A stretch of DNA of 64,000 bases from Alphaproteobacteria bacterium (GTDB lineage: Bacteria; Pseudomonadota; Alphaproteobacteria; Micropepsales; Micropepsaceae), in assembly GCA_028871345.1 (NCBI GenBank), contig JAGWNK010000019.1:1-64000 (forward strand), in the 5' to 3' direction. How positions within the stretch are numbered: the first letter of the stretch is position 1; the number at the start of each line of letters is the position of its first letter. Below, one piece after another: positions 1 through 1,608 of this stretch. The position numbers and the translations under genes were made by a program. Below the pieces are notes generated by a model. It was given only the letters and a program-made list of their open reading frames with translations, did not search any database and was not told the origin of the DNA.

Positions 1-13
1 CGGGAATGATGGG

Positions 14-28
14 GTGGATGGCCCCCTG
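14..28 (+). repeat. Left subterminal inverted repeat of the IS1111-group element
   Basis: The bases GTGGATGGCCCCCTG are the exact reverse complement of 1354-1368. This 15-bp match defines the left side of the element. Confidence 0.85.
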
Positions 29-84
29 ACGGCATCGGTGTGCCAAAGTTGGGTTGTCGAAACTCCAACGAACGGGAGCCATCC

Positions 85-1104
85 ATGAAGAAGATTAGCA
101 CGATTGGTCTGGATTTGGCGAAGAAGGTGTTTGAAGTGCACGCGGTGGATGAGGCTGGACAAGTTGTGGTTCGTCGCAGCCTTCGCCGTGCACAAGTTCT
201 TGGCTGGTTTGGCAAGTTGGCGCCATGCCTGATCGGCATGGAGGCCTGCGCCACGGCCCATTACTGGGGACGGGAACTGAGCAAGCTTGGCCACACGGTA
301 AAACTGATGCCGCCAGCCTACACTAAGCCCTACGTGCGGCGGAACAAGAACGACGCGGCAGATGCCGCGGCGATCTGCGAGGCGGTGAGCAGGCCGTCGA
401 TGCGATTTGTGGCGATCAAGAGCGAAGGGCAGCAGGCGGCCGCCGGCATCCACAAGGTGCGTGAGCTCCTGATGAAGCAGCGCACGATGACGATGAACGC
501 GCTGCGAAGCCTGATGGCGGAGTTCGGCATCGTGGTGCTGGAAGGACCGCGCCATATCTCCGAGTTGATGGCGATCCTCGCCGATCACGATGACACGCGC
601 GTGCCGCAGCCGCTGCATCATGCGCTTGGTCGACTGGCCGAGAGCTTGCGCGGCCTTCAGAAACGCATTGAGGCGATCGACAAGCAGATCGTCGCTTGGG
701 GACGAAACAGCGCGGCCTGCCGCCACCTGATCACGATCCCCGGCTACGGCCCGATCGTGTCGACTGCCATGGCGGCGATGGTGATTGACCCCAAAGCCTT
801 CCGAAGCGCCCGCCACTTCGCCGCCTCGCTTGGCCTGGTTCCACGCCAGGAAGGCACCGGTGGGAAAGTCAAGCTGGGCCCTATCAGCAAGCGCGGCAAC
901 GGCTATCTGCGACGACTTCTGGTCAACGCAGTGATGTCCGTGCTGTGCAGCAAACGCGCCAAGCAGGATCCCTGGCTGATCAAGCTGCTGGCCACCAAGA
1001 AGCGAAAGGTCGTGGCCGTCGCGCTCGCCAACAAATTGGCCCGCATCGGCTGGGTCTTGATGATGCGTCAGGAGAACTACCGCGCCACACCGTTGGCGGC
1101 ATAG
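85..1104 (+). CDS. IS110 family transposase (DEDD recombinase)
   Basis: This 339-residue protein is the recombinase of the insertion sequence. The N-terminal half has the RuvC-like DEDD layout: GLDLAKKVFEVHAVD near residue 10, GMEAC near 52, and KNDAADAAAICEAV near 90. The C-terminal half is the Transposase_20 domain, with TIPGYGPI and then ASLGLVPRQEGTGGK and a KRGNGYLRRLLV stretch carrying the expected serine/glycine region. Family members excise and insert the element as a circle and are guided by an element-encoded bridge RNA. The reading frame is open from 40, but the ATG at 85 begins the conserved MKKISTIGLDLAK sequence, so I start there. The frame is intact, with no sign of decay. Confidence 0.93.
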   Translation: MKKISTIGLDLAKKVFEVHAVDEAGQVVVRRSLRRAQVLGWFGKLAPCLIGMEACATAHYWGRELSKLGHTVKLMPPAYTKPYVRRNKNDAADAAAICEAVSRPSMRFVAIKSEGQQAAAGIHKVRELLMKQRTMTMNALRSLMAEFGIVVLEGPRHISELMAILADHDDTRVPQPLHHALGRLAESLRGLQKRIEAIDKQIVAWGRNSAACRHLITIPGYGPIVSTAMAAMVIDPKAFRSARHFAASLGLVPRQEGTGGKVKLGPISKRGNGYLRRLLVNAVMSVLCSKRAKQDPWLIKLLATKKRKVVAVALANKLARIGWVLMMRQENYRATPLAA

Positions 1105-1353
1105 ACCTCGGTCAGCCAAAGAAGGGGCCAGGAGCAAGGACGATTTGCGAGGGTGAACAGACGTGATGGCATTGTCGGTCAATCGACAGATCGAGGAGAA
1201 CCTGTCAACTGTCATGGGGCATTGCGACCCCGCGGGAATGATCAGGCCTCGATCCACGGTTCCCATCAGGGCCTGCGGTCTTGAACCGCAAAAACAGGCC
1301 GGACACATGACCGCAAGCGACCGCCGTCCATCACTCAAATTTGCCCTTGCAAA
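1105..1353 (+). ncRNA. Candidate bridge RNA region of the IS1111-group element
   Basis: This non-coding stretch lies between the transposase stop and the right inverted repeat, where IS1111-group elements encode their bridge RNA. It can fold: 1271-1299 forms a stem (GCCTGCGGT with ACCGC and CAGGC), and GGGAA at 1234-1238 can pair with TTCCC at 1260-1264 around a 21-base loop. Two short words repeat the element ends: CGGGAATGAT at 1233-1242 equals 1-10, and ACACATGAC at 1303-1311 equals 1367-1375. Guide loops of a bridge RNA are expected to match the donor ends and target in this way. Transcription and exact RNA limits are not visible. Confidence 0.45.
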
Positions 1354-1368
1354 CAGGGGGCCATCCAC
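1354..1368 (-). repeat. Right subterminal inverted repeat of the IS1111-group element
   Basis: The bases CAGGGGGCCATCCAC are the exact reverse complement of 14-28. They mark the right side of the element, about 250 bp past the transposase stop codon. Confidence 0.85.
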
Positions 1369-1371
1369 ACA

Positions 1372-1608
1372 TGACAAAGCCGACTCGAAGGGCGCCTTCG
1401 GCGCGTCGTGTCGCTGCGCCCGTCATTCTGCGAACCGATGTCTATCCGCGATAACCGGTTTGGCGTCTGCGATCGGTAACGGCGCGCGCCGCCTGGAACG
1501 CGCGCTGCGGGTTCCACGTTTCTCTGCCGGCTCTTTGGCGATCCCGGTTCCGTACCGTCAGGTGCCGCAACGGTCCATGACCATCTGTTCATGTCTCGGG
1601 AAAAGTGG
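1372..1608. other. Non-coding stretch between the IS element and the HlyIII gene
   Basis: No convincing gene is seen here. Just outside the element, 1386-1400 forms a short hairpin (CGAAGG, loop GCG, CCTTCG). The longer open frames crossing this region on both strands have no recognisable protein features. Confidence 0.5.

What the first reader, a model, noticed from the sequence alone, without database searches (positions are those of the whole stretch)
1..1375. IS1111-group element whose 3' non-coding region repeats both of its own ends (bridge-RNA guides)
Seen: a 15-bp inverted repeat (14-28 and 1354-1368) bounds an intact IS110-family transposase plus about 250 bp of structured 3' non-coding DNA. 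That stretch contains CGGGAATGAT (1233-1242), identical to the first ten bases of the window next to the left repeat, and ACACATGAC (1303-1311), identical to the right end and junction (1367-1375). Known: IS110-family recombinases use an element-encoded bridge RNA whose loops pair with donor ends and target, and in the IS1111 group it is encoded 3' of the gene. Inference: these two words are parts of the guide loops. The left match may extend beyond the window edge.
Basis: partly seen in the sequence, partly recalled or inferred. Interest (0 to 1): 0.75.

Follow-up and report, generated by a model that had tools for sequence, protein, structure and literature searches.

The report
Jumping gene with bridge-RNA guides

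Summary
Window 7-1371 is an intact IS1111-group (IS110-family) insertion sequence of 1365 bp, with a 339-aa DEDD recombinase. A covariance model built only from 32 relatives finds its bridge RNA (seekRNA) at 1188-1334 (95.7 bits, E 1.6e-26). Seventeen of the model's 24 base pairs show two-sided compensatory changes. Across 38 related elements the non-coding columns that track the insertion-site flanks are exactly those of the predicted guides. CGGGAATGAT (1233-1242) is the left target guide, plus the TG core, plus two bases matching the element's left end. ACACATGAC (1303-1311) is the left donor guide, plus the core, plus two bases matching the right target. One correction: the first six bases of the window are host target DNA, not an element end. 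The window starts where two copies' left flanks diverge, an assembly break; those flanks look like intergenic palindromes. This is a new member of a known kind. A modest extra: IS1111 relatives carry crossed 'handshake' bases like those described for IS621.

The parts
1..6 (+). Left target (host) flank CGGGAA, last bases of a palindromic intergenic repeat
   Evidence: Same 10 bases then divergent flanks in two copies; position set by ends of relatives
7..1371 (+). IS1111-group insertion sequence, 1365 bp (core TG at 7-8 repeated at 1372-1373, so the end is ambiguous by the core)
   Evidence: Ends aligned with about 75 related elements: TGATGGG before IRL and ACA after IRR
7..13 (+). Left 7-bp terminal extension TGATGGG (right donor in the circle)
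   Evidence: complement of 1262-1268
14..28 (+). Left subterminal inverted repeat
85..1104 (+). DEDD (IS110-type) recombinase, 339 aa, from ATG at 85
   Evidence: NF033542 324 bits, PF01548, PF02371; similarity to ISCro4 and IS621 structures
1188..1334 (+). Predicted bridge RNA (seekRNA) region
   Evidence: Model built without this sequence: 95.7 bits, E 1.6e-26
1189..1254 (+). Target-binding loop: helix 1189-1196/1247-1254, helix 1201-1204/1243-1246, inner hairpin 1216-1219/1228-1231
   Evidence: Single-sequence fold; compensatory changes in relatives
1207..1214 (+). Right target guide AACTGTCA (complement TGACAGTT; right target here is TGACAAAG, 5 of 8)
   Evidence: RT+1..+6 track columns 1212..1207 as complements, best column for each
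1233..1240 (+). Left target guide CGGGAATG (LT plus core)
   Evidence: LT-5..-1 track columns 1234-1238 as identity, best column for each
1241..1242 (+). Handshake bases AT of the target loop, matching left end bases 9-10
   Evidence: First post-core base matches donor, not target, in 20 of 24 informative relatives and 22 of 23 in outer clades
1262..1268 (+). Right donor guide CCCATCA, exact complement of 7-13
   Evidence: Sequence; LE6 tracks column 1263 as complement
1270..1300 (+). Inner stem of the donor-binding loop: 1270-1273/1297-1300 and 1275-1279/1285-1289
1303..1309 (+). Left donor guide ACACATG (right end ACACA plus core TG)
   Evidence: RE-4 and RE-2 match columns 1304 and 1306 in 100% of relatives
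1310..1311 (+). Handshake bases AC of the donor loop, matching right target bases 1374-1375
   Evidence: 20/24 and 31/33 informative relatives; weaker in outer clades
1354..1368 (+). Right subterminal inverted repeat
1369..1371 (+). Right 3-bp terminal extension ACA
1372..1379 (+). Core TG and right target flank TGACAAAG

Best explanation
The element at 7-1371 is an IS1111-group insertion sequence that moves by bridge-RNA (seekRNA)-guided recombination. The 3' non-coding region is transcribed into an RNA with two internal loops. The target loop (RTG 1207-1214, LTG 1233-1240) pairs with both strands of a host site CGGGAA-TG-ACA. The donor loop (RDG 1262-1268, LDG 1303-1309) pairs with both strands of the RE-TG-LE junction of the excised circle. 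The DEDD recombinase cuts at the TG core of both and exchanges strands. The two bases after each core (1241-1242 and 1310-1311) are placed to pair with the incoming, non-cognate partner (handshake), which is why both words read straight across the element-host junctions. Shown here: gene family, ends, RNA structure conservation, guide-flank covariation, more than one copy at like sites. Inferred: transcription, RNA-protein complex, circle, strand exchange, current activity.
For: Recombinase NF033542 'IS110 family RNA-guided transposase' 324 bits (cut-off 140), with both Pfam halves. Ends 7 bp and 3 bp outside the repeats, as in relatives. Model from 32 relatives without this sequence hits 1188-1334 at 95.7 bits; next-best hit in 64 kb is 6.1 bits. 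17 of 24 pairs with two-sided changes against 6.7 in shuffles, 93.8% of cells paired against at most 42% when slid. For LT-5..-1, RT+1..+6 and RE-4, RE-2 the best-tracking column (leaving aside the end itself) is the guide position. Right-target guide 6/6 in 37 of 75 elements with their own flank versus 93 of 5490 with others' flanks. Five copies of a same-genus relative all sit at YCGC|TGCGCT.
Against: The right target here matches the right target guide at only 5 of 8 positions, and only one right flank is in the assembly. No empty site could be recovered: the intergenic flank is not conserved in 69 same-genus genomes. The lowest-energy fold of 1187-1316 alone forms the target loop but not the donor loop; the donor loop rests on comparison. 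No transcript or activity data.
Confidence: 0.95

Rival explanations
1. The two repeated words are chance matches in an otherwise ordinary terminator or regulatory 3' region.
For: Each word alone occurs at that length in 0.8% and 3.3% of shuffles.
Against: Both together 0 of 5000; the same columns hold flank-matching words in dozens of elements with other targets.
Confidence: 0.01
2. The words are binding sites or end duplications (for example remnants of earlier insertions or recombinase-protein sites) and not RNA guides.
For: They are same-strand repeats of end sequences.
Against: The partner guides are complementary, not identical (RTG, RDG); all lie in internal loops of a helix set with compensatory changes on RNA pairing rules; they change with the host flank, which an end-binding protein site would not.
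Confidence: 0.03
3. A real bridge-RNA element that is now inactive in this genome.
For: Right target guide mismatches at three outer positions; only two or so copies.
Against: Intact reading frame with DEDD residues and the GL-P----TG motif, intact repeats, intact guides, identical 149-base ends in copies.
Confidence: 0.2

Closest known systems
IS1111-group elements with seekRNA (ISEc11, ISPa11, ISKpn4, ISPst6; PMC11187229)
   Same: 3' non-coding RNA, subterminal repeats with a 7-bp left extension (3-bp right extension from my own knowledge of the group), top-strand-complementary guide 5' of the bottom-strand-complementary guide
   Different: Different target (CGGGAATGACA at palindromic intergenic repeats). 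Full-length relatives in the collections searched reach at most about 58% protein identity
IS621 bridge RNA and recombinase (PMC11208160, PMC11208158)
   Same: Two-loop RNA with LTG/RTG and LDG/RDG, core dinucleotide inside each guide, bases 3' of the core fitting the non-cognate DNA (handshake), insertion at palindromic repeats
   Different: RNA lies 3' not 5' of the gene, strand order of the guides reversed, core TG not CT, long inverted repeats, threonine (TG motif) where IS621 and ISCro4 have the serine
IS elements targeting REP sequences (PMC1525189; ISPpu9, PMC8450116)
   Same: Insertion at repeated extragenic palindromes
   Different: The REP-like repeat here is one I could not match to a named family

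Membership tests
IS1111 group of IS110 family | DEDD recombinase with Transposase_20 C-terminal half, 330-350 aa, GL-P----S/TG motif | tested here: met
   339 aa, GLVPRQEGTG
IS1111 group of IS110 family | Long subterminal inverted repeats with 7-bp and 3-bp extensions | tested here: met
   15 bp perfect; TGATGGG and ACA
IS1111 group of IS110 family | Long non-coding region downstream of the gene | tested here: met
   249 bp between stop and right repeat
Bridge RNA / seekRNA | Conserved two-loop RNA structure | tested here: met
   donor loop is not the single-sequence minimum
Bridge RNA / seekRNA | Guides matching both strands of target and of donor junction | tested here: met
   RTG 5 of 8 at this copy
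Bridge RNA / seekRNA | RNA expressed, bound to recombinase and needed for transposition | not testable with these tools
   Needs experiment
IS1111 group of IS110 family | Circular intermediate and no net target duplication beyond the core | tested here: inconclusive
   No empty site recovered; core TG on both sides as in relatives
Handshake guides as in IS621 | Bases 3' of the core match the non-cognate DNA rather than the cognate DNA | tested here: met
   20/24 target loop, 20/24 and 31/33 donor loop; 22/23 target loop but donor loop only 8/23 and 12/23 in outer clades

The most novel reading that the evidence does not exclude
IS1111-group bridge RNAs carry crossed handshake bases on the strand opposite to IS621 (extending the bottom-strand-pairing guides LTG and LDG past the core), so strand exchange in this group would proceed by the same handshake logic with the strands mirrored. 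I found no statement of this for IS1111 in the parts of the three open papers on the mechanism that I read.
Probability: 0.55. Interest if true: 0.45.

Novelty: new member of a known kind. Interest (0 to 1): 0.3.

Why it matters
It is a clean natural bridge-RNA system with all four guides, core and ends assigned, in a subgroup (IS1111) for which a sequence search of the PDB found no close solved complex (one search lists only ISCro4 and IS621). The alignment of relatives gives ready-made guide-target pairs. If the crossed handshake bases are general in IS1111 elements, they would matter for designing guides for this group.

Tried and rejected
Rfam has no family for it (only sub-threshold chance hits). 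PADLOC gave nothing. An empty site by orthology failed because only the downstream gene, not the intergenic flank, is conserved. Plain RNAalifold on the full alignment gave a weak consensus, because the window's right-target guide is one base longer and mafft shifted one arm (inner hairpin only 21% paired); an alignment without the window row solved this. A first guide test using the best match anywhere in the region gave only a weak left-guide signal (mean 4.3 versus 3.8); the position-resolved test was decisive. The idea that the left word is an element end was rejected: bases 1-6 are host.

Full report
Observation. The window is the start of contig C82 of a 3.9-Mb, 113-contig genome. Two other contigs, C108 and C92, begin with the reverse complement of bases 1-149 and then carry different left flanks. 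Both flanks end in CGGGAATGAT and diverge at the base just before it, so position 1 is the assembly's branch point between at least two copies, not an arbitrary cut. Both flanks are palindromic (GGCATGAAGCGCGCGGCACTTCATGCTCGG and GGCGCGAGCCGCAACGCGGCTCGCGTTCGC). CGGGAATGAC occurs 29 times in the genome against 4 for the reversed control, and CGGGAATG 243 against 43. Some of the other occurrences lie in similar palindromic repeats (e.g. L120, L124, L139) and others look like ordinary sequence; I did not sort them further.

The element. The ORF at 85-1104 is an IS110-family recombinase (NF033542, 324 bits; PF01548 and PF02371), with IS621 and ISCro4 as the only solved relatives by sequence. About 100 relatives were collected. 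For about 75 the ends could be anchored on the inverted repeats. In most of the alphaproteobacterial ones the left repeat is preceded by a 7-bp extension of the type TGATGGG or TGATGC and the right repeat followed by ACA and then TG; the 7-bp left extension is the one described for IS1111 elements (PMC11187229). By this the element is 7-1371 with a TG core, the left target is ...CGGGAA and the right target TG-ACAAAG.

The RNA. The region 1187-1256 folds into helix, internal loop, hairpin (-28.8 kcal/mol, z -2.6). A structure drawn from relatives has 24 pairs, 93.8% of cells paired, 17 pairs with two-sided changes (shuffles 6.7, none of 500 as high) and falls to at most 42% paired when slid. 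Helix 4 of the donor loop is nearly invariant and so says nothing by itself. A covariance model of the relatives without the window finds 1188-1334 at 95.7 bits and nothing else meaningful in 64 kb. It also finds the RNA in nearly all of 45 further loci, including betaproteobacterial and gammaproteobacterial ones.

The guides. In 38 aligned elements (the window's among them) each flank position was compared with each column of the non-coding region. For left target -5 to -1 the best column is 1234 to 1238 in order (identity). For right target +1 to +6 it is 1212 to 1207 in order (complement). For right-end positions -4 and -2, columns 1304 and 1306 agree in every element. Left-end position 6 is best tracked by 1263 (complement). 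Common descent alone would not put the best column on the right diagonal each time. A separate test with each element's own flank against all others' flanks gives 37 of 75 perfect right-target guides against 93 of 5490. The order, top-strand-complementary guide first, is that reported for IS1111 seekRNAs (PMC11187229).

What the two words are. CGGGAA-TG-AT is left target guide, core and two bases equal to left-end bases 9-10. ACACA-TG-AC is left donor guide, core and two bases equal to the right target. Each word therefore reads across a host-element junction. In IS621 the two bases 3' of the core in the second guide of each loop are handshake guides that pair with the incoming strand of the other DNA (PMC11208158). 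In relatives where donor and target differ at the first post-core base, the target loop matches the donor in 20 of 24 (target in 4) and the donor loop matches the target in 20 of 24 (donor in 2); at the second base the donor loop matches the target in 31 of 33. In outer clades the target-loop pattern holds (22 of 23), but the donor loop matches the target in only 8 and 12 of 23, while still rarely matching the donor (4 and 0 of 23). The sequences are related, so these counts are not independent events.

Verdict. The mechanism steps from transcription onward are inferred from published IS621 and ISEc11 work, not shown here.

Noticed in passing
L085, L089, L098, L106, L111 and others: In beta/gamma IS1111 relatives the left end starts TA or CA although the right flank and the guide cores read TG or CG (LE second base A in 27 of 29; guide core equals right target in 25 of 29). 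The core mismatch at the left junction is unexplained.
   Followed up: partly
G000:C43:7811-8773: A second, distant IS110-family recombinase (27% identity) in the same genome.
   Followed up: no
L002 150-250, L003 150-250, L120, L124, L139: A family of REP-like intergenic palindromes ending in CGGGAATGAC, the likely target repeat of this element.
   Followed up: partly
L011, L029, L151, L156, L158: A same-genus relative with five chromosomal copies, all at YCGC|TGCGCT, with outer flanks that partly recur between copies (e.g. the right flanks of L156 and L158, the left flanks of L151 and L156), suggesting recombination between copies or insertion within one repeat family.
   Followed up: partly
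window 1372-1590: The intergenic flank between the element and the downstream gene at 1591-2280 is not conserved in the genus, only the gene is.
   Followed up: yes
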